A DNA stretch of 64,000 bases from Pseudomonas oryzihabitans. Lineage in GTDB: Bacteria; Pseudomonadota; Gammaproteobacteria; Pseudomonadales; Pseudomonadaceae. A program made the position numbers and the translations under genes. Below, one piece after another: positions 13,279-23,009 of this stretch. Positions within the stretch are counted from its first letter, which is position 1; every line of letters begins with the position of its first letter. The DNA lies in NCBI RefSeq assembly GCF_001518815.1, contig NZ_CP013987.1, forward strand, positions 62,001 through 126,000. The letters are read 5' to 3'. The notes beneath the pieces are model-generated. The model had not been told where the DNA came from. It was given only the letters and a program-made list of their open reading frames with translations, and ran no database searches.

Positions 13279-14571
13279 TCAGTCGCCGCTGACCTGGCGC
13301 AGATGGCCGGCTGGCGCCTCTTCGCCGAGGTTGTTGAGCAGGCGCTCGCTGTACCAGTCGATGAAGTTGATCACGCCGAATTCGTAAGTCTTTGAGTAGG
13401 GACCCGGCTGGTAGGCCTTGGAGTTGATACCGCGCTGGTTTTCCTCGGCCAGGCGACGATCCTGGTCGTTGGTGGCATCCCAGACCTTGCGCAGGTTGAC
13501 CGGATCGTAGTCGACGCCTTCCACGGCATCCTTGTGTACCAGCCACTTGGTGGTCACCACGGTCTCGGTCGGACCCAGCGGCCAGACGGTGAAGACAATC
13601 ATGTGATCGCCCATGCAGTGGTTCCAGGAGTGCGGCAGGTGCAGGATGCGCATGGAACCCAGGTCCGGGTCCTTGATGCGACCCATGAGTTTCTTGCAGC
13701 CGGGCTTGCCGTCCAGGGTCATGGACACGGTACCGGCGAGCAGCGGCATGCGCACGATGCGGTTGCGCAGGCCGAAGCTGGCGTGGGCATAGGGGATGTT
13801 GTCGGCGTCCCAGCGACTGGTGCAGGCGGCGACCTGGTCCTTGAACGCCTGGGAGGCACGCGGATCGGTGACGTCGTCCCATTCCAGCAGGGTGTTCAGC
13901 AATTCGGGGTGGGAACCGCTGCAGTGATAGCACTCGCGGTTGTTTTCCAGCACCAGCTTCCAGTTGGCCTGCTCGACCAGGTCGGTGCGTACCGCGACCT
14001 TGGCGTTCTCCATGTCGTACGGCTCCATGTAGTGCTCGAGCGTACGCAGGAAGTCGTCGATGGCCGGCGGTTCATCGGCCAGGGAGATGAAGATGTAGCC
14101 GCCAGCGGTCTTGACGTGGATCGGCTTGAGGTTGAAGTCGGCCATGTTGAAGTCGGCGCCCATCTCGGTGCCGGCGAACAGCAGGCGGCCGTCCAGCTCG
14201 TAGGTCCACTGGTGGTAGGGGCAGACCAGCTTGGCGACCTTGCCCTTGTCGCTCACGCAGAGGCGCGAGCCGCGGTGACGGCAGACGTTGTGGAAGGCGT
14301 GGATCTTGCCCTCGGCGCCACGGATCACCAGGATGGGGTTGTCGCCCAGCTGCAGGGTGATGAAGTTGCCCTTGGTGGGGATCTCGCAGGTCATGCCGGC
14401 GATCAGCCACTCCTTGCCGAAGATCTCCTGCATGTCGATCTGGAACAGGCGCTCGTCGTTGTAGAAGGGCTGGGGCAGGGAATAGGTGCGCTCGCGGGTG
14501 CGCAGCATCTCGGCCGTGGCCTTGCGGGCCGGATCGAGAGGGTCGCCCAAACTCAAGGTGCTGACGTCCAT
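13279..14571 (-). CDS. gbcA: Glycine betaine monooxygenase, Rieske oxygenase subunit
   Basis: A 430-residue Rieske-type oxygenase. The Rieske cluster ligands are in CRHRG and CPYHQW (spacing C-X-H-X17-C-X2-H), and the mononuclear iron site is in NNRECYHCSGSH. The protein opens MDVSTLSLGDPLDPARKATAEML, the same as GbcA of P. aeruginosa, which removes a methyl group from glycine betaine to give dimethylglycine and formaldehyde with electrons from GbcB. The ATG at 14571 has a GAGG seven bases upstream; the longer frame to 14619 is not needed. It is divergent from gbcB over 330 bases. Confidence 0.95.
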   Translation of the reverse strand: MDVSTLSLGDPLDPARKATAEMLRTRERTYSLPQPFYNDERLFQIDMQEIFGKEWLIAGMTCEIPTKGNFITLQLGDNPILVIRGAEGKIHAFHNVCRHRGSRLCVSDKGKVAKLVCPYHQWTYELDGRLLFAGTEMGADFNMADFNLKPIHVKTAGGYIFISLADEPPAIDDFLRTLEHYMEPYDMENAKVAVRTDLVEQANWKLVLENNRECYHCSGSHPELLNTLLEWDDVTDPRASQAFKDQVAACTSRWDADNIPYAHASFGLRNRIVRMPLLAGTVSMTLDGKPGCKKLMGRIKDPDLGSMRILHLPHSWNHCMGDHMIVFTVWPLGPTETVVTTKWLVHKDAVEGVDYDPVNLRKVWDATNDQDRRLAEENQRGINSKAYQPGPYSKTYEFGVINFIDWYSERLLNNLGEEAPAGHLRQVSGD

Positions 14572-14901
14572 CGTACATCCTCGTGGCCACCGCGATGGGT
14601 GGCGAAAGTGGTTGGTCACGGTACTGCAAGGCTTTTACGGCCGACGGGGCGGGAGCGCCGAATGATCCCAGACTTCGCCCGTCGCGCGCTGTTCAGGTTC
14701 GGCTTGGGGCGGAGTGTGGGGCCGGAGCCGGGAGAGGGCCTTGCTCATGGGCGACATGGCCGACGCTGTTCACGACGCCCCAGCCCTTGCCGTTGCTGGG
14801 CCGGTCGCCATCGGCATGTGGATGTCGCGATTGGGAAAGTGGCGGTCGTGGGGCCCTCACAGAATCGCCGCCAATAGCCCCAGTGGCAGTCGAGGTGCGC
14901 C
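14572..14901. promoter_or_regulatory. Divergent gbcA/gbcB control region
   Basis: This 330-base gene-free stretch must carry promoters for both genes. In P. aeruginosa gbcA and gbcB are activated by the AraC-family regulator GbdR in response to betaine or dimethylglycine. I see a pair of inverted heptamers, GCGACAT at 14751-14757 and ATGTCGC at 14822-14828, one nearer each side, that could belong to activator sites. I did not match them to a published GbdR consensus. Confidence 0.4.
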
Positions 14902-15999
14902 ATGAACACTTTCATCAACCCTGTTACCACCCAGACCTGGACCAATGGCCGCCATCCCGTGCGCTGCGTCAAGGTAATCCAGGAAACCTGGGACGTGCGC
15001 ACCTTCTGCTTCACGGCCGAAATTCCGCTGATGTACTTCTTCAAGCCGGGCCAGTTCGTGACCCTGGAACTGGAGATCGATGGCAAGCAGGTGATGCGTT
15101 CCTACACCATCTCCAGTTCGCCTTCGGTGCCCTACAGCTTCTCCATTACCGTCAAGCGCGTGCCGGGCGGCCTGGTGTCCAACTGGCTGCACGACAACCT
15201 CAAGGTCGGTGAGAACCTGGCCGTGCATGGCCCGGTCGGCCTGTTCAACGCCATCGACTACCCGGCCGACAAGGTGCTCTACCTCTCCGGCGGCGTGGGT
15301 ATCACCCCGGTGATGTCCATGGCGCGCTGGTTCTACGACACCAACGCCAGCGTCGATATGGTCTTCGTGCACAGCGCCCGTACCCCGCGCGACATCATCT
15401 ATCAGGGCGAGCTGGAGCACATGGCTGCCCGGATCGACAACTTCGCCCTGAACCTGGTGTGCGAGCGCACCGAGCATGGCGAATCCTGGGCCGGCTTCCG
15501 TGGCTACTTCGATCGCCGCATGCTGGAGCTGATGGCACCGGACTTCCGCGAGCGCGAGATCTTCTGCTGCGGCCCCACGCCCTACATGAACGCCGTCAAG
15601 GCCATGCTCCGCGAGCTGGACTTCGACATGACCCGCTACCACGAGGAATCCTTCGGCGCGACGCCGCCGGAAGCCAAGGTCGAGGCCGCCGAACAGGCCG
15701 AAGCCGCCGCCGACCTGCCGCCGATTCCCCTGGAAGCCCAGTGCCTGATCTCGTTCACCGAGAGCGACAAGAGCATCAACATCGGCCCCGGCGAGACCAT
15801 CCACGGCGCCGCCGCCAAGCTTGGCCTGCACATTCCCAAGGCCTGCGGCATGGGCATCTGCGGGACCTGCAAGGTGCTCAAGAAGAGCGGCGAGGTGGTC
15901 ATGGACCACAATGGTGGCATCACCGAGGAAGATGAAGCCGAAGGCTACATCCTGTCCTGCTGCAGCATTCCGAAGGGGGATGTGCAGATCGAGTTCTGA
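14902..15999 (+). CDS. gbcB: Glycine betaine monooxygenase, reductase subunit
   Basis: A 365-residue electron-transfer protein that feeds GbcA. Domain order is an FAD-binding domain with RSYTISSSP, an NAD-binding domain with LSGGVGITPVMSM and CCGPTPYM, and a C-terminal plant-type [2Fe-2S] ferredoxin with CGMGICGTCK and a final CCSIP cysteine. GAGG stands seven bases before the ATG. The family and the divergent gbcA make the assignment firm. An Ala/Glu-rich linker joins the reductase and ferredoxin parts. Confidence 0.95.
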   Translation: MNTFINPVTTQTWTNGRHPVRCVKVIQETWDVRTFCFTAEIPLMYFFKPGQFVTLELEIDGKQVMRSYTISSSPSVPYSFSITVKRVPGGLVSNWLHDNLKVGENLAVHGPVGLFNAIDYPADKVLYLSGGVGITPVMSMARWFYDTNASVDMVFVHSARTPRDIIYQGELEHMAARIDNFALNLVCERTEHGESWAGFRGYFDRRMLELMAPDFREREIFCCGPTPYMNAVKAMLRELDFDMTRYHEESFGATPPEAKVEAAEQAEAAADLPPIPLEAQCLISFTESDKSINIGPGETIHGAAAKLGLHIPKACGMGICGTCKVLKKSGEVVMDHNGGITEEDEAEGYILSCCSIPKGDVQIEF

Positions 16000-16007
16000 G
16001 GGCAAGG

Positions 16008-16098
16008 GTAGGTTGGGCTGAGACAGCTTCATTGTCGAAGCCCAACAAGGCAGGGTGCCGTGGTGGTGTTGGGCTTCGCTGCGCTCAGCCCAACCTAC
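16008..16098. repeat. Inverted-repeat element, single copy (same family as the array at 43.5-44 kb)
   Basis: GTAGGTTGGGCTGAG at 16008-16022 is matched by its reverse complement at 16084-16098. An inner pair, GAAGCCCAAC (16037-16046) and GTTGGGCTTC (16068-16077), makes a nested hairpin. The element sits nine bases after gbcB, between gbcB and a convergent gene, where it may act as a bidirectional terminator. No transposase or coding capacity. Confidence 0.85.
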
Positions 16099-16126
16099 AA
16101 CTAGCGGTACCGCGTCCCGAAAACCG

Positions 16127-17239
16127 CTAGGCCAGCCGCAACGGCAGGTGCAGGGTGATGATCACCTCGCCCGCGCCGTTGGCGAAGCGCGCCTCGCCAC
16201 CAAAGCTTTCGCTGAGCGCCTTGACGATGGGCAGGCCCAGACCCCAGCCGCGTTTGTCGCTGCGGGTGGAGATGAAATAGGGCGTGGCCAGATTGGCCAG
16301 GACCTCGTCGGGGAACTGGCCGAGGTTGCGCAATTCCAGTACCACCCGCTCCCCGATCCGCTGCTGGCGCACCTGGATCGGCGTACCGCTCTGGCCATGC
16401 TTGGCGGCGTTGAGCACCAGGTTGTCGAAGATACGCAGGAAGGCGTACCTGTCCCAGAGCACCTCCAGCTCGGGCGTCTCCAGCCGAAGGTCGAGCGCAT
16501 TGCTGAATTGCAGGCGCAGATTGGCCGCCGCCTCTTCCAGCAGTGGCCCCAGCACCAGGGGATCGCCGTTGAGGCGGACGCCGCCGCCCAGACTCATGTG
16601 ACTGATGTCCAGCACGTCGGTGATCATCTGGTTCATCCGCTGCAGATTGTCGTGCAGCGTCTGCAGGAGATCGTCGGTACGCCGCGCCGGACTGCGCTGC
16701 ATCAGGTTGACCACCATGGTGGCGGCGGTGAGCGGTGAGCGCAGGTCATGGTTGAGCGATCTCATGAAGCGTTCGAGCATGACCTTTTCCGCCTGCAGAT
16801 TCTCGCTGCGGGCGATGGCCGAATTGCGCTGCTGCTCCATGTGTCCGACCCGGGAACTGGCCTTGAGCAGGGCACCGACGGTGGCCAGCACCTCTTCCGG
16901 ACTGATCGGATGGATCAGATAGGCCTGGGCGCCGGTATTGAAGCCCTGCGCCCGGTCGAGGCCGGACACGAAGGTGGCCGAGATGTTGATGATGGCGGGC
17001 AGGCGACCCCAGCCCAGCTTGTGCTCGATGGCCTGGATCAGTTCGAAGCCGGTGGTGTCCGGCAGGTTGACGTCGATGATCACCAGCTCGACCGACGCGT
17101 CGATCAGCGCCAGCCCGGCGGTGCCGCTGGCCGCTTCGAGCACCTGGTAGTGCGGCTGACCTTCCAGGATCTTGCGCAGCACATAGCGATTGGCCTCGGT
17201 GTCATCGATGATGAGGATACGCCGCACAGGGCTAGTCAT
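16127..17239 (-). CDS. Receiver-histidine kinase protein ending the stressosome operon
   Basis: A 370-residue protein with an N-terminal receiver domain (IIDD at 10-13, phospho-acceptor Asp56 in IIDVNLP), a short coiled linker, a HisKA domain with His164 in SLNHDLRSPL, and a HATPase_c domain with WGLGLPIV near the end. No membrane helix and no DNA-binding domain. Its start overlaps the stop of the hybrid kinase gene by eight bases. It probably takes phosphate from that kinase or another, then signals onward by phosphotransfer or protein contact; the target is unknown. Confidence 0.88.
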   Translation of the reverse strand: MTSPVRRILIIDDTEANRYVLRKILEGQPHYQVLEAASGTAGLALIDASVELVIIDVNLPDTTGFELIQAIEHKLGWGRLPAIINISATFVSGLDRAQGFNTGAQAYLIHPISPEEVLATVGALLKASSRVGHMEQQRNSAIARSENLQAEKVMLERFMRSLNHDLRSPLTAATMVVNLMQRSPARRTDDLLQTLHDNLQRMNQMITDVLDISHMSLGGGVRLNGDPLVLGPLLEEAAANLRLQFSNALDLRLETPELEVLWDRYAFLRIFDNLVLNAAKHGQSGTPIQVRQQRIGERVVLELRNLGQFPDEVLANLATPYFISTRSDKRGWGLGLPIVKALSESFGGEARFANGAGEVIITLHLPLRLA

Positions 17240-18989
17240 CGGTCAGGCTCCGCGCCAGGGCGCAGACTTCGGCGAGCAACCGTTCGGCATGATCGGGGGC
17301 GTGCTTGAACAGGATGGCGCGGCAATAGTCCTGCAGCCGCAGGCGACCGGCCTCGTCCAGTGGCTGGGCGGTGTTGATCAGCACCCGGCGATGCATGCTC
17401 CAGTCCATGCTGGCGAGCAGGTCTTCGCCGTTGATGTCCGGCAGATCGAGGTCGAGGATGATGATGTCCGGGCGCACGGCATTGAGGCGATCCAAGCTGC
17501 TACGGGCGCTGTCGGCCTCCAGCAGGACCGGGTTGAGGCGTTCGAGGGTGCGACGGACCAGATAGCGATCGCCTTCGTTGTCTTCGATCACCAGCACGGT
17601 CAGGTTGCTGAGATCCAGCTCCTGTCCGGCCTCCGCGTCACTGACGTAGCGACGGGGCAGCCGCAGGGTGAAGCGACTGCCCCGTCCGACCAGGCTGTCG
17701 AGGGACAACTCGCCCTTGAGCAGCACGGCCAGGCGCTGGGCCAGGGGCAGGCCCAGGCCTGTGCCTTCGATATGGGTCAGGTGCGGCGAGCGGATGCGCT
17801 CGAACTCCTCGAAGATCTTCTGCTGGTCTTCCTCGGCGATGCCGATCCCGCTGTCTTCCACCAGGAATTCCAGGGTGGCGTCGTCCGGCTGGAACACCTG
17901 GATGCGCACCTGCCCCTGGGGGGTGTACTTGAAGGCGTTGGAGATCAGATTGCGCAGCACCTGGAACAGCCGGCTCTCGTCGGTTTCCAGCAGCACCTCC
18001 GCCGGCGGCGGGGCGACGCTGAAGCTGACTTGAGGATAGCGCGGCGCCAGGGCCATGGCGAACTGGTCGAGGCGCTCGATGAAGGCGCCCAGCTGGAACG
18101 GCTGGGGCACGATGGTCAGGCGGCCGGACTGCACCTCGGCCAGCGCCAGCAACTCGCTGACCAGATTGGCCAGCTCCAGCGCGGCGTCGCTGATGAAGCG
18201 TACCTGGCGCTGCTGCTCGGCATTGAGCGCGCCATCCACACCACTGGCGAGCAGCTTGGCGACGTTCTCGATGATGTTGATCGGGGTACGGAATTCATGG
18301 GTCATGTTGGAGAAGAAACGGGTCTTCGCCTCGCTGGCCTCCTTGAGTTCCTGGGTAGCTTTTTCCAGTTCCGAATAGAGCGCCACCACGCCCTGATTGG
18401 TGTTTTCCAGCTCCTTGTTGGTGACCTCCAGCTCCGACTGGCGCAATTGCAGCTCGGTGTTGGTCAGCAGCAGCTCTTCGCTCTGCAGGCGGATCTGCTG
18501 ATAGGGATCGGGCGGCGTACTGCCTTGCAATTCGACGACCAGGGCGCGTAGCACGTCCTGCTCGGGCCAGGGCCGCGGCGCCTGGTACTTACAGGCGGTG
18601 ATCCGGGTGCCGGCAGGGGAGGTCTGGAGATCGAACTCGTCGAACAGCCGCTGGGCGCCGCGCAGGCCGATGCCCATGCCGGTGCTGGAGCGATAGCTGC
18701 CGTCGCGGATGGCCTCCAGCTCGGCGATACCCGGGCCCTGGTCGAGGGCGCGGACCTGTAGCCCACGTAGCCGCTGGTCGTCGCCGCACAGCAGGGCGAA
18801 GTCGAAATGGCCGCTGCCCGCGTACTGATGAATGTTGCGCGCCAGCTCCGAGACCGCGGTAGCCAGGCGGATCTGCTCCAGTACCGGCCATTCCAGGGCC
18901 GCGGCCAGGCGTTTGGCCGCCTGGCGGCAGTGCACGATGTCCTGCTCGCTGCGCAAGGGAAGGGTCAGCAGGGGCAGGGCGTCAAACAT
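17232..18989 (-). CDS. Cytosolic hybrid histidine kinase with N-terminal RsbT-like domain
   Basis: A 585-residue protein. Residues 1-135 form an RsbW/RsbT-type ATPase domain (N-box SELARNIHQYAG, DQGPGI near 83-88, GMGIGLRGAQ near 104-113). Residues 160-220 are a coiled coil rich in Glu, Leu and Asn. HisKA has His231 in NMTHEFRTPINI, then HATPase_c with GLGLPLAQRL near 411-420. A C-terminal receiver holds Asp513 in IILDLDLPDING. The ATG at 18989 overlaps the preceding stop by eight bases. The anti-sigma-type domain fused to a hybrid kinase links stressosome output to phosphorelay signalling. No membrane segment. Confidence 0.88.
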   Translation of the reverse strand: MFDALPLLTLPLRSEQDIVHCRQAAKRLAAALEWPVLEQIRLATAVSELARNIHQYAGSGHFDFALLCGDDQRLRGLQVRALDQGPGIAELEAIRDGSYRSSTGMGIGLRGAQRLFDEFDLQTSPAGTRITACKYQAPRPWPEQDVLRALVVELQGSTPPDPYQQIRLQSEELLLTNTELQLRQSELEVTNKELENTNQGVVALYSELEKATQELKEASEAKTRFFSNMTHEFRTPINIIENVAKLLASGVDGALNAEQQRQVRFISDAALELANLVSELLALAEVQSGRLTIVPQPFQLGAFIERLDQFAMALAPRYPQVSFSVAPPPAEVLLETDESRLFQVLRNLISNAFKYTPQGQVRIQVFQPDDATLEFLVEDSGIGIAEEDQQKIFEEFERIRSPHLTHIEGTGLGLPLAQRLAVLLKGELSLDSLVGRGSRFTLRLPRRYVSDAEAGQELDLSNLTVLVIEDNEGDRYLVRRTLERLNPVLLEADSARSSLDRLNAVRPDIIILDLDLPDINGEDLLASMDWSMHRRVLINTAQPLDEAGRLRLQDYCRAILFKHAPDHAERLLAEVCALARSLTDD

Positions 18990-19962
18990 GCTTGAGTACC
19001 AAAACGGTGGCATCGTCGGAAAGACGCCGGAAGTCACGATGCAGGAGCGCTGCGATCAGCGCGGGATGGCGCGCCCCGAGCCCGGAGTGCTCGCCCAGGC
19101 CGACCTTGGAGGTCAGTCCGTCGGAGTTCAACACCAGCAGGGTGCCTGGCGTCCAAGGGTAGGTGAAGGTCTGGATCCGACCGATCCGGTAGCCCAGGGT
19201 GCCATTGTTAGACACCAGACTGCGCGAGGTGTTGCCAAGCAGGCGCCCGGCGATGTTGCCGATGCCACAGAAGCTCACCTGACCCTGATCGGGGTCCAGC
19301 TCGGCGAGGGCCAGGGCCGCGCCGCGGGTTTCCATCAGGGCCTGATGCAGATTTTCCATCAGCCGCTGCAGGGGCAGGTGCGTGCCCTGGCGCAGGAACA
19401 GCTCCCGCGCCCGGCGACTGGCCGCGGCGGCCTGCTGGCCGTGTCCCAGGCCATCGCATACCAGCAGGCGACGCCCGCTGACCGCCCAGGTGTCGCCACA
19501 GACCTGCTCCTCGGGGTGCGGCGTGCAGAGGGCACCATGCTGCAGCCGGGTACTGGGTGCCCCAGCGAGATGAAAGCGCGCCAGCACCACGGTCCCTTGA
19601 CCCGGTCGCGAGTGGATATCGAAGACATCGGATTGCCGGCGGATCGCTCCGAGACCTGCCCCCAGGGTGGCCGCGGTGCTGTAGTGATCGGTCAGGCAGC
19701 GGGCGACGTCGTGCATGCCTGGGCCGCGATCAACCGCCAGGACATCGAGCACGCCTTCGGCGCCCAGCGTCGCGAAAAGCTCGCCGTGACCCGCATGGCG
19801 GATCAGGTTATAACCCAGTTCCTGAGCGACGATGGTCAGCCGCCCGAGCAGGGTTTCGTCAGTGGTGACGGTGCCCGCCAGCCGCACCAGGGCGCGCCGC
19901 GCGGCATCGACATGGACCGTGCTGGTCACCGGCAGCACCAGGCTGCACGGCTGCTCGTTCAT
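18982..19962 (-). CDS. RsbX-like PP2C phosphatase fused to an RsbT-like ATPase domain
   Basis: A 326-residue protein. Residues about 15-130 form a GHKL ATPase domain (AQELGYNLIRHAG at 46-58, DRGPGM at 78-83). Residues about 140-326 form a SpoIIE/RsbX-type PP2C phosphatase with metal-ligand segments EEQVCGD (151-157), VCDGLGHG (168-175) and LNSDGLTSK. In B. subtilis, RsbX removes phosphate from RsbS and RsbR to reset the stressosome; this protein should do so here. It starts by ATGA overlap with rsbT at 19959-19962. The extra ATPase domain is not in classic RsbX. Confidence 0.87.
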   Translation of the reverse strand: MNEQPCSLVLPVTSTVHVDAARRALVRLAGTVTTDETLLGRLTIVAQELGYNLIRHAGHGELFATLGAEGVLDVLAVDRGPGMHDVARCLTDHYSTAATLGAGLGAIRRQSDVFDIHSRPGQGTVVLARFHLAGAPSTRLQHGALCTPHPEEQVCGDTWAVSGRRLLVCDGLGHGQQAAAASRRARELFLRQGTHLPLQRLMENLHQALMETRGAALALAELDPDQGQVSFCGIGNIAGRLLGNTSRSLVSNNGTLGYRIGRIQTFTYPWTPGTLLVLNSDGLTSKVGLGEHSGLGARHPALIAALLHRDFRRLSDDATVLVLKHV

Positions 19963-20348
19963 CGCCACTTCCACAATTCGACGGTCGTGCCCTGGCCGGG
20001 CTGGCTATCGATATGGAAGTCGTCCACCAGCCGTCGCGAACCGGACAGCCCCAGCCCCAGGCCCTTGCCCGAGGTGTAGCCATCGACCATGGCGCGGTCG
20101 AGGTCGGCGATGCCCGGACCGTTGTCGCGGATCACTAGGCGGATCGCCGGCTTGCCGGCCCGCACCGTCTCCTCGATCAGGCACTCGCCGCCCAGGCCGT
20201 AGACCAGACCATTACGCGCGATCTCGCTGGCCGCGGTGACGATCTTGGTCTGGGAGATCAGCCCCAGACGGATGGCTTCGGCGACCTTGCGCACCTGCTG
20301 ACGGATCAGCACGATGTCAGTCTCCTGGCGGAGTGGAAGCGTCTGCAT
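19959..20348 (-). CDS. rsbT: RsbT, stressosome switch serine/threonine kinase
   Basis: A 129-residue GHKL-type kinase. The N-box Asn46 lies in SEIARNGLVYG, the ATP-lid Asp in IRDNGPGI (74-80), and the glycine box in GKGLGLGLSGSRRL. RsbT is held by RsbR/RsbS, phosphorylates both on stress, and leaves to activate its target. The ATG at 20348 was chosen because the family begins about seven residues before the conserved RxExDI segment; it overlaps the rsbS 3' end by 32 bases, which is longer than usual. A GTG three codons upstream is possible. Confidence 0.92.
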   Translation of the reverse strand: MQTLPLRQETDIVLIRQQVRKVAEAIRLGLISQTKIVTAASEIARNGLVYGLGGECLIEETVRAGKPAIRLVIRDNGPGIADLDRAMVDGYTSGKGLGLGLSGSRRLVDDFHIDSQPGQGTTVELWKWR

Positions 20349-20742
20349 CTTCGCCACTCTCTGACTCCTCCAGCGATTCGTCGTCGGCGACCATGGCTTC
20401 CAAGCGGCGCATGCCCTTTTCCATGTTCAGCGCCGTGGCGATGCCATCCAGCGACAGCCCCAGTTCCACCAGGGTGATGGCCACCGCCGGCTGCATGCCG
20501 ACCACGATCACCTTGGCATCGAGGATGCGCGATACCTGGGCGATATGGGACAGCATCCGGCCAATGAAGGAATCGACGATTTCCAGGGCCGAGATGTCGA
20601 TGAGCACGCCCTTGGCCTTGTGCCGGACGATCTGCTCGGTGAGGTCTTCCTGCAGGTCCAGCGCCAGCTGGTCGTGCATGTCCACCTGGATGCTCAGCAA
20701 CAGGAAGGGGCCCAGCTTGAGGATGGGAATCCGGTCGATCAT
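20317..20742 (-). CDS. rsbS: RsbS, STAS-domain stressosome core protein
   Basis: A 141-residue STAS-domain protein that opens MIDRIPILKLG. The phospho-acceptor Ser58 is in EIVDSFIGRML, matching Ser59 of B. subtilis RsbS, and GMQPAVAITLVELG follows as in the family. RsbS and RsbR build the roughly 1.8 MDa stressosome that holds RsbT. The C-terminus has an unusual acidic tail (ESLEESESGEDADAS). The ATG at 20742 has GAGGAG upstream; a longer frame to 20814 overlaps rsbR and is rejected. Confidence 0.94.
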   Translation of the reverse strand: MIDRIPILKLGPFLLLSIQVDMHDQLALDLQEDLTEQIVRHKAKGVLIDISALEIVDSFIGRMLSHIAQVSRILDAKVIVVGMQPAVAITLVELGLSLDGIATALNMEKGMRRLEAMVADDESLEESESGEDADASTPPGD

Positions 20743-20752
20743 GGCGGGCTCC

Positions 20753-21592
20753 TCAGCGCACGGTCGGGGCGGCCAGGCGCACGCCCTGCTGGCGCAAGGC
20801 CAGGCGGAAGGCATCGGCCAGGGACGCCTTGGTGATCACATCGCCGAGTTCCACGCCCAGGTGGACGATGGTGGCGGCGATCTGCGGGCGGATGCCGCTG
20901 ATGATGCACTGGGCGCCCATCAGCCGCGCGGCGGTCACGGTCTTGAGCAGGTGCTGGGCGACCATGGTATCCACCGTGGGCACACCGGTGATGTCGATGA
21001 TGGCGATGTCGGATTCGGTCTGGACGATCTTTTCCAGCAGCGACTCCATCACCACCTGGGTGCGGTTGCTGTCCAGCGCGCCGATCAACGGAATGGCCAG
21101 GATGCCGTCCCACAGCTCCACCACGGGGGTGGACAGCTCCAGCATGCTTTCCTGCTGCTCGCGGATCACCGTCTCGCGACCCGTCATGTAGCTTTCCATG
21201 CTGTACAGGCCGAGGTCGTCGATCAGCCGGGTGGCGGCCCAGATTTCGGCGAGGGGATCGTCACACTCGTTCTGGATCAGGGTGAACAGCGGTTCCTTGA
21301 GCGAGAAGACGAAGGTCGCCGTCTGCGAAGGCGTCAGGCCCGCTCGGCTCTGGTCGAAGGAGAAGCGCTCCAGCAGCGCCCGTACCGGCTGCCAGTGCGG
21401 CTCGCGCAAGTCCCCGAGACCCTGAGCCGCGGCTACCGTAATCCGCCGCAGGAACTCGGCGGAATTGGCCAGGATGGTGGTTTCGTCGAGCAGGTCGACG
21501 CGCATGCCGGCGGCGCGCTGGGCGCCGATCCAGGCGTCGAGCAGCGCCCGCTCGTGGGTGCGCAGCAGCTCGACCAAAGCGGTACTGTACAT
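20753..21592 (-). CDS. rsbR: RsbR, STAS-domain stressosome sensor protein
   Basis: A 279-residue protein with an N-terminal helical sensor (about 1-150; RsbRD_N type rather than the globin-like RsbRA type) and a C-terminal STAS domain (about 155-275). The two RsbT target threonines of B. subtilis RsbRA are conserved as T209 in GVPTVDTMVA and T241 in RPQIAATIVHLG. It is the first gene of the operon and is followed by rsbS after ten bases. The signal sensed is unknown; the N-terminus has no haem or flavin ligand that I recognise. Confidence 0.92.
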   Translation of the reverse strand: MYSTALVELLRTHERALLDAWIGAQRAAGMRVDLLDETTILANSAEFLRRITVAAAQGLGDLREPHWQPVRALLERFSFDQSRAGLTPSQTATFVFSLKEPLFTLIQNECDDPLAEIWAATRLIDDLGLYSMESYMTGRETVIREQQESMLELSTPVVELWDGILAIPLIGALDSNRTQVVMESLLEKIVQTESDIAIIDITGVPTVDTMVAQHLLKTVTAARLMGAQCIISGIRPQIAATIVHLGVELGDVITKASLADAFRLALRQQGVRLAAPTVR

Positions 21593-21673
21593 GGAGGTTC
21601 CTAGGTGAAGAAAGGCGGCTCAGGACGGGCCAACCGGACGAAGAGGGTGCGGGAGGAGATGGTAGGGCGAAGG

Positions 21674-21697
21674 GGACCTGGCCGTCTGGCCAGATCC
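21674..21697 (-). terminator. Possible terminator of the PepSY gene
   Basis: GGACCTGGCC and GGCCAGATCC form a ten-pair stem (one G-T pair) with a four-base loop, eight bases past the PepSY stop. No T run follows on the minus strand, so it may work weakly. Confidence 0.35.
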
Positions 21698-21704
21698 CGA
21701 GAGA

Positions 21705-21968
21705 TCACATGTCCATCTTTTCCTTGGTGATCTTGCCGGTCTTGGCGTCGGCATGGAAGTCGTACTTCATACCATCTTTCTTCATGCCTTCGCCTTCCCA
21801 CTGACCGTCATCGGCTTCGATCTTGCTGATCGAGGTATAGCCCTGCTCCATGAGCTTGGACTTGACGTCGTTCATGGGCATCCAGTCAGCACCGGGCTGG
21901 TCGGCCAGGGCCGCGGTGCTGGCCAGGACGGAACAGGCAAACAGGGAAGCGAGCAGCTTGGATTTCAT
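21705..21968 (-). CDS. PepSY-domain periplasmic protein
   Basis: An 87-residue protein with a signal peptide (KLLASLFACSVLASTAALA, cleavage near residue 22) and one PepSY domain: VKSKLMEQGYTSISKIEADDGQWEGEGMKKDG and a FHADAKTGKITKE end. PepSY domains often inhibit proteases or bind metals or small ligands. Such short single-domain proteins are common in Pseudomonas, sometimes near two-component genes. It precedes rsbR by about 110 bases in the same direction; a link to the stressosome is possible but unproven. Confidence 0.85.
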   Translation of the reverse strand: MKSKLLASLFACSVLASTAALADQPGADWMPMNDVKSKLMEQGYTSISKIEADDGQWEGEGMKKDGMKYDFHADAKTGKITKEKMDM

Positions 21969-22043
21969 CGCGCGAGACCTCGTCGTGGTGGTATGTCCTG
22001 GCTTGGACCACCACCACGGGCGACAAATCCCCCGAGCAGGCCC

Positions 22044-23009
22044 TCAGGTACGGGATTCTTCGACCAGATGCGGCAGCAATCCAGCCGGTGCCGCCTTGGA
22101 TTTGCCCTTGGCCTTGCGGGGTGCATAAGGGTGGCTAGCCAGGCGCCAGAGATCGCGCCAGCGCTCGGCGAGGGTAGTGGGCTTGTCGAGGTAGAGGCGC
22201 AGGCCCAGGGAAAAGGCTTTCACCCGCAGGCGCTCGCGTTGCAGGGCCAGGCTTTCGCCGATGGCCTGGCGGGTGTTGCTGGCGCCGAACAGCGTCGGCT
22301 CGCTTTCCAGCAGCTGCTGCATCACCGCCATGTCGTGGTCGTCGCCCAGGTATTCCGAGAGGCGCTTGAGGCTCTTCTGGCGCGTCTTGAATTCCGCCGG
22401 CCAGGCCGCGGCGAGCAACTGGGTGTGGTACCAGTGATCCTTCACTCGCTTGCGCCAGTCGTGCAGGGTCTCGTCGGTGGGCTTGTCGCGAGCGGTCTTG
22501 AGCGCCTGGCGCCCGGCCTTGTAGTTGTCTTCCAGTCCTCGGGTGAAGAGGGCGAAGCCCTTTCCGGAGAGCTTCCAGCCGGCTACCTCCTCGCGCAGGG
22601 CCGCCAGTTCGTCGAGCAGTTCGGGATGACCGCTGGCCGCGGCGATCTGCTGGTCGGCGCGCTCCTGCAGGCGCTGGCGTACGCGCTTCATGGCGGGCGA
22701 GGCGAAACGCTTGCGATCGGACTCGCCCAGCTTGTCCCAGCTCTCCACCAGGGCGGCGCTGTCGCGCAGCGAAGAGAGCTCACGGCCCAGGTCGCGCAGG
22801 CGCCGGTTGCGACTGGCGAAGGCGCGCTTGCCGAGGGCGCCGTGCAGCAGGCGCAGCAGGGCACGCAATTCCTTGAGGCGCTTGCGCGTCTCGTGCACCC
22901 CCTTGGGGGTCCCGCTCGCCAGCGACGCTTCAGCCTGGACCAGACGATCCGTCACCACTCGGCGGACTTCCTCGTCAGCCGGTTGCCGCGCATCGAAACG
23001 AAAGGCCAT
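22044..23009 (-). CDS. CHAD-domain (polyphosphate-binding) protein
   Basis: A 321-residue helical protein made of CHAD halves, with the conserved basic and His residues: GVHETRKRLKELRALLRL near 40-57, and LHDWRKRVKDHWYHTQLL and LGDDHDM later. CHAD proteins bind inorganic polyphosphate through these positive helices. The gene faces a polyphosphate:AMP phosphotransferase, which supports a polyphosphate role. The ATG at 23009 has GAGGAG upstream; the open frame to 23096 has no start support. The C-terminus is basic (RKAKGKSKA). Confidence 0.92.
   Translation of the reverse strand: MAFRFDARQPADEEVRRVVTDRLVQAEASLASGTPKGVHETRKRLKELRALLRLLHGALGKRAFASRNRRLRDLGRELSSLRDSAALVESWDKLGESDRKRFASPAMKRVRQRLQERADQQIAAASGHPELLDELAALREEVAGWKLSGKGFALFTRGLEDNYKAGRQALKTARDKPTDETLHDWRKRVKDHWYHTQLLAAAWPAEFKTRQKSLKRLSEYLGDDHDMAVMQQLLESEPTLFGASNTRQAIGESLALQRERLRVKAFSLGLRLYLDKPTTLAERWRDLWRLASHPYAPRKAKGKSKAAPAGLLPHLVEESRT

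What the first reader, a model, noticed from the sequence alone, without database searches (positions are those of the whole stretch)
16127..21592. Stressosome operon in a Pseudomonas, ending in two-component proteins with no DNA-binding output
Seen: rsbR, rsbS, rsbT and an RsbX-like phosphatase gene in order, then a hybrid histidine kinase and a receiver-kinase, all overlapping or within ten bases. RsbS Ser58 and RsbR T209/T241 are conserved. Known: RsbRST controls SigB in Bacillus and, in Gram-negatives, is linked to two-component or c-di-GMP proteins. Inference: stress sensed by RsbR is passed by RsbT to a cytosolic phosphorelay that here has no transcription-factor end; the final target must be coded elsewhere.
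Basis: partly seen in the sequence, partly recalled or inferred. Interest (0 to 1): 0.72.

Follow-up and report, generated by a model that had tools for sequence, protein, structure and literature searches.

The report
Stressosome wired to histidine kinases
A six-gene operon in a Pseudomonas pairs the stress-sensing complex known from Bacillus with a histidine-kinase relay, and comparison with relatives points to a short shared helix as a possible plug that joins them.

Summary
In detail: rsbR-rsbS-rsbT-rsbX-D1-D2, minus strand, 16127-21592, one tight operon with conserved catalytic sites. The order stood in 40 of 40 close loci (38 genomes). RsbR is in 13 of 13 genomes held for the genus and 152 of 398 of the family. 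No D1 or D2 relative scanned with Pfam had a DNA-binding domain. The interpretation needs three changes. (2) Before its kinase core D1 has a helix, TNxG[VL][VL]AL[YH]xE[LVI]. It recurs in kinases without the RsbT domain and in actinobacterial PP2C effectors; in 103 of 103 ORFs tested it lies just after rsbX. I propose it receives RsbT or the fused paralogue. But 20 of 127 loci with rsbX lack it. (3) D2's receiver lacks the usual lysine, as do 52 of 52 relatives of the same kind. Binding and phosphotransfer are not shown. New variant of a known kind.

The parts
20753..21592 (-). rsbR: sensor domain (RsbRD_N, res. 6-107, globin-like model) + STAS (res. 157-248); T209 and T241
   Evidence: Pfam; invariance; fold; the genome search with RsbR (E up to 1) gave only itself and RsbS
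20317..20742 (-). rsbS: single STAS domain, S58
   Evidence: Pfam; S58 41/41
19959..20348 (-). rsbT: GHKL switch kinase; starts 32 nt inside rsbS
   Evidence: Pfam; E42, N46, D75, G77, G79, G98, G100 41/41; overlap
18982..19962 (-). rsbX-like: N-terminal RsbT-like ATPase (res. 16-127) + PP2C/SpoIIE phosphatase (res. 165-325)
   Evidence: Pfam; 14 motif positions checked, 13 at 41/41 and G233 at 40/41
17232..18989 (-). D1: RsbT-like ATPase + helix + HisKA (H231) + HATPase + receiver (D513, K562)
   Evidence: Pfam; 18 motif positions checked, 17 at 41/41 and position 469 E or D
18588..18932 (-). D1 residues 20-134: RsbT paralogue domain
   Evidence: PF13581; tree; model pLDDT 90.5 (residues 1-165); Foldseek best matches SpoIIAB and RsbW
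18366..18401 (-). D1 residues 197-208, TNQGVVALYSEL: proposed stressosome output helix
16127..17239 (-). D2: receiver (D56, H110 in place of Lys) + HisKA (H164) + HATPase (N305 in place of the G1 Asp); last gene
   Evidence: Pfam (G333 is 40/41, F309 varies)

Best explanation
The operon encodes a stressosome whose output is a cytosolic histidine-kinase relay. RsbR (a globin-like sensor probably without haem, plus STAS) and RsbS form the core. RsbT phosphorylates the STAS residues T209, T241 and S58; RsbX, tethered by its own RsbT-like domain, removes the phosphates. D1 is an RsbT paralogue fused to a histidine kinase. Either RsbT in trans or the D1 domain in cis is held by the unphosphorylated STAS core; when stress phosphorylates the core it is freed and grips the TNxG[VL][VL]ALYxEL helix next to the kinase core, ordering the coiled coil and switching on autophosphorylation at H231. 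Phosphate then goes to D513 of D1 and/or to D2, whose unusual receiver and kinase half pass or gate it towards an unlinked partner. Shown: genes, domains, conserved residues, gene order, paralogy, and that in the loci held the helix was found only just after rsbX. Inferred: every binding, switching and phosphotransfer step.
For: Domains and conserved catalytic residues. Order R-S-T-X-D1-D2 in 40/40 loci. Tree (quick, SH-aLRT): RsbT and D1 domains together split from the X domains at 100; RsbT one group at 88 (32 rows), D1 one group at 92 (24 of 26 rows; the other two were wrong ORFs). D1 domain model: best Foldseek matches are SpoIIAB and RsbW, in entries with a STAS or sigma partner. The Arg that aligns by eye with RsbT R19, named in PMC12143880 as an RsbU contact, is invariant in RsbT, X and D1 (41/41 each; Listeria RsbT for comparison). 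Helix in 40/40 first-type D1s and 30/30 kinases without the RsbT domain, where it starts 23-92 residues from the longest ORF start (29 of 30 at 62 or fewer), and in PP2C effectors; 103 of 103 ORFs follow rsbX; 24 of 24 plasmid records matching it have it in a stressosome locus; none of 200 permuted patterns hit any ORF. PMC12143880 (passages): RsbT activates RsbU by ordering a coiled-coil linker. Natural variants: one D1 domain has by eye lost its ATP-site residues but is kept (L285); R-X-D1 without rsbS or rsbT (L079).
Against: No binding or phosphorylation data. Heinz et al. (PMC9237108, section 10) report failure to show VvRsbT-VvD1 interaction in a related but different system. 20 of 127 loci with an rsbX match lack the helix (L081 is cut by its contig end), and only 24 of the 99 plasmid records with an RsbS match gave a helix match, so stressosomes without it are many. 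Some RsbT-domain kinases lack it (L066, L079, L286, and the HWE-type L087, L088, L298), so the domain can work without it. Conserved signalling helices are common in kinases and phosphatases, so the motif may only transmit. The RsbU linker resembles the motif at three residues at most (T89, R91, G92 by the paper's numbering) and the Listeria RsbU linker does not keep the Gly. The 40 loci and 103 ORFs include near copies (L132 = L062, L133 = L085, L067 and L068 one strain).
Confidence: 0.45

Rival explanations
1. D1 docks directly on the stressosome core through its RsbT-like domain and reads the STAS phosphorylation state there; RsbT is only the kinase of the core and never touches D1. The helix is just a conserved transmission element.
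For: All three enzymes of the operon carry the STAS-binding fold (D1 domain); loci with RsbR and an RsbT-kinase but no rsbS or rsbT beside them exist (L079, L286; the genome of L286 has a full operon elsewhere, L285); one D1 domain is degenerate in its ATP site by eye, as expected of a pure docking domain (L285).
Against: 30 of 30 second-type Pseudomonas kinases and the five actinobacterial PP2C effectors scanned lack the domain but keep the helix; direct docking cannot explain them.
Confidence: 0.3
2. RsbT phosphorylates the downstream kinase on Ser/Thr, the possibility raised by Heinz et al. for kinases without RsbU_N.
For: Raised in PMC9237108 (section 10 read); RsbT retains the kinase residues checked.
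Against: I did not look for a conserved Ser/Thr target; the fused paralogue and shared helix suggest a binding mechanism.
Confidence: 0.12
3. The D1 domain is an active Ser/Thr kinase for some other STAS protein of the cell, making D1 a branch point rather than an end.
For: Its E48, N52, D83 and four glycines are intact in 41/41; the genome has six STAS matches besides RsbR and RsbS.
Against: Neither neighbour of the operon looks like a STAS gene by eye; the degenerate L285 case.
Confidence: 0.08

Closest known systems
Bacillus/Listeria stressosome RsbRST-X with RsbU-RsbV-RsbW-SigB
   Same: RsbR, RsbS, RsbT and a PP2C feedback phosphatase with the conserved Thr/Ser sites; RsbT there activates its effector through a coiled-coil linker (PMC12143880, passages)
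   Different: No RsbU_N effector; effector is a histidine kinase; RsbX has an extra RsbT-like domain; RsbR single copy
Vibrio vulnificus RSTX-D1-D2 (Heinz et al. 2022, PMC9237108; section 10 read, other passages seen)
   Same: RSTX followed by a two-component pair in one cluster; the paper also names kinase-receiver phosphorelays as a downstream type in other genera
   Different: There RsbR is a haem globin and RsbX a single-domain phosphatase (the paper); D2 is linked to c-di-GMP (PMC10014275, passages). In the four loci that I read as this type (L294, L296, L299, L300) D1 is HK-REC-REC-HPt without RsbT domain or helix, and the one D2 scanned (L299) is REC-HD
Effectors with RsbU_N beside stressosome genes: Moorella GGDEF protein and proteobacterial kinases (as cited in PMC4976288 and PMC12143880, passages)
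   Same: RsbT carries the signal to a non-SigB effector
   Different: Those targets use RsbU_N; here no RsbU_N match appeared in any protein scanned
SpoIIAB/RsbW/RsbT GHKL switch kinases
   Same: Fold and ATP-site motifs of the D1 and X N-terminal domains
   Different: Here fused to a histidine kinase or a phosphatase

Membership tests
Stressosome RsbRST module | RsbR with sensor + STAS and the two conserved Thr | tested here: met
Stressosome RsbRST module | RsbS single STAS with conserved Ser | tested here: met
Stressosome RsbRST module | RsbT GHKL kinase with intact N, G1, G2 boxes | tested here: met
Stressosome RsbRST module | Megadalton RsbR-RsbS-RsbT complex | not testable with these tools
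   needs purification and cryo-EM
RsbX feedback phosphatase, single PP2C domain | single-domain PP2C | tested here: not met
   326 aa with an N-terminal HATPase_c_2 domain; in the PP2C half six of seven positions checked are 41/41, one Gly 40/41
RsbU-type RsbT target | RsbU_N four-helix domain | tested here: not met
   no such Pfam match at E 0.01 in the six proteins
Vibrio-type RSTX-D1-D2 | haem-binding globin sensor in RsbR | tested here: inconclusive
   globin-like fold but no conserved His in residues 1-150: best columns H13 21/41, H66 15/41; haem binding itself untested
Vibrio-type RSTX-D1-D2 | D2 with a c-di-GMP domain (GGDEF, EAL or HD) | tested here: not met
   D2 is REC-HisKA-HATPase
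Canonical receiver domain | Asp pocket, phospho-Asp and conserved Lys | tested here: not met
   D2: D12, D13, D56 kept, Lys replaced by H110 in 41/41; 69 of 70 other receivers of this genome examined have Lys

The most novel reading that the evidence does not exclude
The TNxG[VL][VL]AL[YH]xE[LVI] helix is a portable docking tag by which RsbT, or an RsbT paralogue fused in cis, drives unrelated effectors (histidine kinases, PP2C phosphatases) in one large class of non-SigB stressosomes; D1 is then a direct molecular bridge between Ser/Thr partner switching and His/Asp signalling.
Probability: 0.4. Interest if true: 0.82.

Novelty: new variant of a known kind. Interest (0 to 1): 0.6.

Why it matters
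How stressosomes without SigB pass their signal on is open; Heinz et al. note that most downstream proteins in their set lack the RsbT-binding domain RsbU_N (PMC9237108). A conserved helix shared by two unrelated effector types, and an RsbT paralogue fused beside it, make that question testable with peptides and point mutants. The module is common in Pseudomonadaceae and occurs on the Deinococcus radiodurans megaplasmid and in bacteria of several phyla.

Tried and rejected
Haem sensing: the RsbR sensor model is globin-like but has no conserved His, so I do not claim O2 sensing.

Target by neighbourhood: in the flanks of 29 first-type loci no gene family stood in more than 7 (a crude choice of ORFs). 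The 7-member group linked kinases of different kinds (L051, L056, L063 close to each other; L041, L042, L045 another kind; L043 a third). Two of 30 second-type loci, with flanks of about 3 kb, have a phytochrome-like gene next to the operon: kept as a note only.

Promoter: no sigma-70-like promoter or terminator over 15900-22100, and no shared upstream block but the region just before the start codon in nine near relatives; this says little.

HPt or STAS partners in the genome: 13 HPt and 8 STAS matches; none singled out.

RsbU likeness of the helix: short, not kept in Listeria; not used as proof.

D2 as a dead kinase: its G1 Asp is Asn in 41/41, but some active kinases carry Asn there (recalled), so I leave it open.

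phmmer of the D1 domain against solved structures gave only chance-level matches; the alignment search and the fold search found SpoIIAB.

Rows dropped: L079, L090 and L091 are not D2 proteins; L090 and L091 D1 rows were wrong ORFs and sit on a long false branch; a first receiver count read some loci on the wrong strand and was redone. The first motif pattern missed L104, L107, L108 and L285, whose helix ends in Ile; the revised pattern gives 107 ORFs in 107 of 134 loci; position after rsbX was computed for the first 103. L147 entered these counts with one neighbouring ORF only, and L145, L146 and L148 not at all. Near copies were not removed: L132 is the contig of L062, L133 that of L085, L067 and L068 are one strain. 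The RsbT-domain tree has few columns and many open forks.

Literature: searches of the held open-licence library (listings cut at 40 of 66, 20 of 261, 12 of 105) showed no paper on a Pseudomonas stressosome-kinase operon, the RsbT-kinase fusion or the helix. The two main reviews (Pane-Farre 2005, 2017; seen only in a reference list) were not read and may describe the fusion. Papers opened: PMC9237108 (section 10 and passages), PMC4976288, PMC10014275, PMC12143880, PMC5209427, PMC8508746 (passages).
Full report
What is there. The minus strand of 21592-16127 holds rsbR, rsbS, rsbT, rsbX, D1 and D2. Pfam gives RsbR = RsbRD_N + STAS; RsbS = STAS; RsbT = GHKL ATPase; RsbX = RsbT-like HATPase_c_2 + SpoIIE phosphatase; D1 = RsbT-like HATPase_c_2 + HisKA + HATPase + receiver; D2 = receiver + HisKA + HATPase.

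How common. All 13 genomes held for the genus (this one included) and 152 of 398 drawn from the family have this RsbR at E 1e-20. By identity, 34 of the 152 fall at 66-100%; the others that the cut list shows lie at 51-58%, but for one partial match at 63%. In 40 loci of the first type (38 genomes: L132 and L133 repeat L062 and L085) all have the six genes in order on one strand. In 30 sampled loci of the second type, rsbRSTX is followed by a kinase of about 280-350 residues as read from the longest ORF, and a protein starting with a receiver, about 640-730 residues where complete (L111 is cut by its contig end); Pfam of three of these D2s and one kinase gave REC-PAS-HK-REC and HisKA-HATPase. 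The collection scan kept the best 80 of 95 matches, 79 distinct loci, so it favours close relatives. Beyond pseudomonads, R-S-T-X-D1-D2 with the RsbT domain on D1 occurs in Gemmatimonadales, Bdellovibrionales, Solirubrobacter, Terriglobia and Rhodospirillaceae loci (Pfam of some) and on the Deinococcus radiodurans MP1 megaplasmid. In the one Solirubrobacter D2 scanned it is REC-PAS-PP2C. In L087, L090 and L298 the RsbT domain is fused to a different kinase type, HisKA_2/HWE.

Three paralogues. A tree of 93 RsbT-like domains (quick method) separates RsbT plus D1 domains from X domains at support 100, with RsbT (32 rows) one group at 88 and D1 (24 rows) one group at 92; two further D1 rows were wrong ORFs. 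The same split runs through several phyla, so I infer that the trio is older than the spread of the operon. All three keep the GHKL residues checked in 41 of 41. The D1 domain model (pLDDT 90.5) matches SpoIIAB and RsbW best, kinases whose known partners are STAS proteins or sigma factors.

The helix. The start of the second-type kinases aligned with the D1 linker: ELEETNQGVLALYAEL against ELENTNQGVVALYSEL. A pattern from this segment is present in 40 of 40 first-type D1s, 30 of 30 second-type kinases, 12 of 16 kinases of other named loci and 7 of 15 of the loci from the phylum sample (L285 of that sample has it with a final Ile). It is also in the gene after rsbX in Amycolatopsis and relatives (11 loci by the first pattern, 3 more with Ile). 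Five of these were scanned: all are PP2C phosphatases, not kinases, three with a GAF match, over cut-off in one. Of 8565 ORFs (70 or more residues, 90 in the last 20 loci) in 134 loci, 103 carry the first pattern and in all 103 it lies from -50 to 900 nt after the end of an rsbX match on the same strand; a revised pattern gives 107, one per locus, in 107 of the 127 loci with an rsbX match. In 72,556 plasmid records a 32-residue query found 24 at E up to 1; 23 lie 1.5-2.2 kb from an RsbS match, one of them across the start of a circular record, and the last, in Nonomuraea, lies in a locus with R, S, T and X matches. The converse does not hold: 99 plasmid records have an RsbS match, so 75 gave no helix match, most of them Phaeobacter and Streptomyces. 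In this genome the six other places that match a 63-residue piece of the region lack the motif. In second-type kinases the helix and a short variable tail are the whole input region, so the signal should arrive there. PMC12143880 (passages) shows that RsbT activates RsbU by ordering a coiled-coil linker, with T89, R91, G92 and Q94 implicated. I infer that the helix is the receiving site and that D1 has an RsbT paralogue fused beside it.

D2. Its receiver keeps the Asp pocket but has His in place of the conserved Lys in 41 of 41. In 43 true D2 relatives (46 rows less three wrong ones) the residue is H in 37, Q in 4, D in 1, E in 1; in nine more it is H in 7, Q in 1, A in 1: no Lys in 52. Thirteen of the 52 were scanned with Pfam and all 13 are fused to a kinase or, once, a phosphatase. 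Lys is present in six other receivers at that position (L071, L086, L089, L292, L299, L300): two scanned ones stand alone (L071, L086), L299 is the REC-HD protein. It is also present in 69 of 70 other receivers of this genome examined (of 103 matches). What its loss does to signalling is unknown.

Limits. Everything about binding, activation and phosphate flow is inference. Exceptions exist: RsbT-domain kinases without the helix (L066, L079, L286, HWE types), and Vibrio-like and Bacteroidetes loci without it. L079 has R-X-D1 with no rsbS, and no stand-alone rsbT, found in its draft genome, whose completeness is not given; L285 has a D1 domain whose ATP-site residues are lost by eye. Both argue that the domain's first role is binding.

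Verdict. A real, conserved operon of a known kind in a variant for which I found no description. The shared helix and the fused RsbT paralogue are the parts that a specialist would want to test.

Noticed in passing
L145 4204-10008: Deinococcus radiodurans MP1 megaplasmid carries the same R-S-T-X-D1-D2 operon (DR_RS15570-15595), annotated only as STAS, anti-sigma and ATP-binding proteins.
   Followed up: partly
L146 7157-12576: A 29-kb Xanthomonas vasicola plasmid carries the second-type stressosome-kinase operon.
   Followed up: partly
   Followed up: partly
L118 8545-10800; L144 992-3232: A phytochrome-like gene (motif recalled) lies next to the operon in two of 30 second-type Pseudomonas loci.
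   Followed up: no
window 20317-20348: rsbT starts inside rsbS with an overlap of exactly 32 nt in 40 of 40 loci, which suggests coupled translation.
   Followed up: no
window 21705-21968: A small co-directional gene (87 aa, PepSY-like by eye) lies 112 bp upstream of rsbR; its 3' end is conserved in the window and eight near relatives. It might share the transcript.
   Followed up: no
window 13279-15999: Genes that look like glycine betaine demethylase subunits (Rieske oxygenase and reductase; by eye, no search) lie beyond D2; the nearer one ends convergently with it.
   Followed up: no
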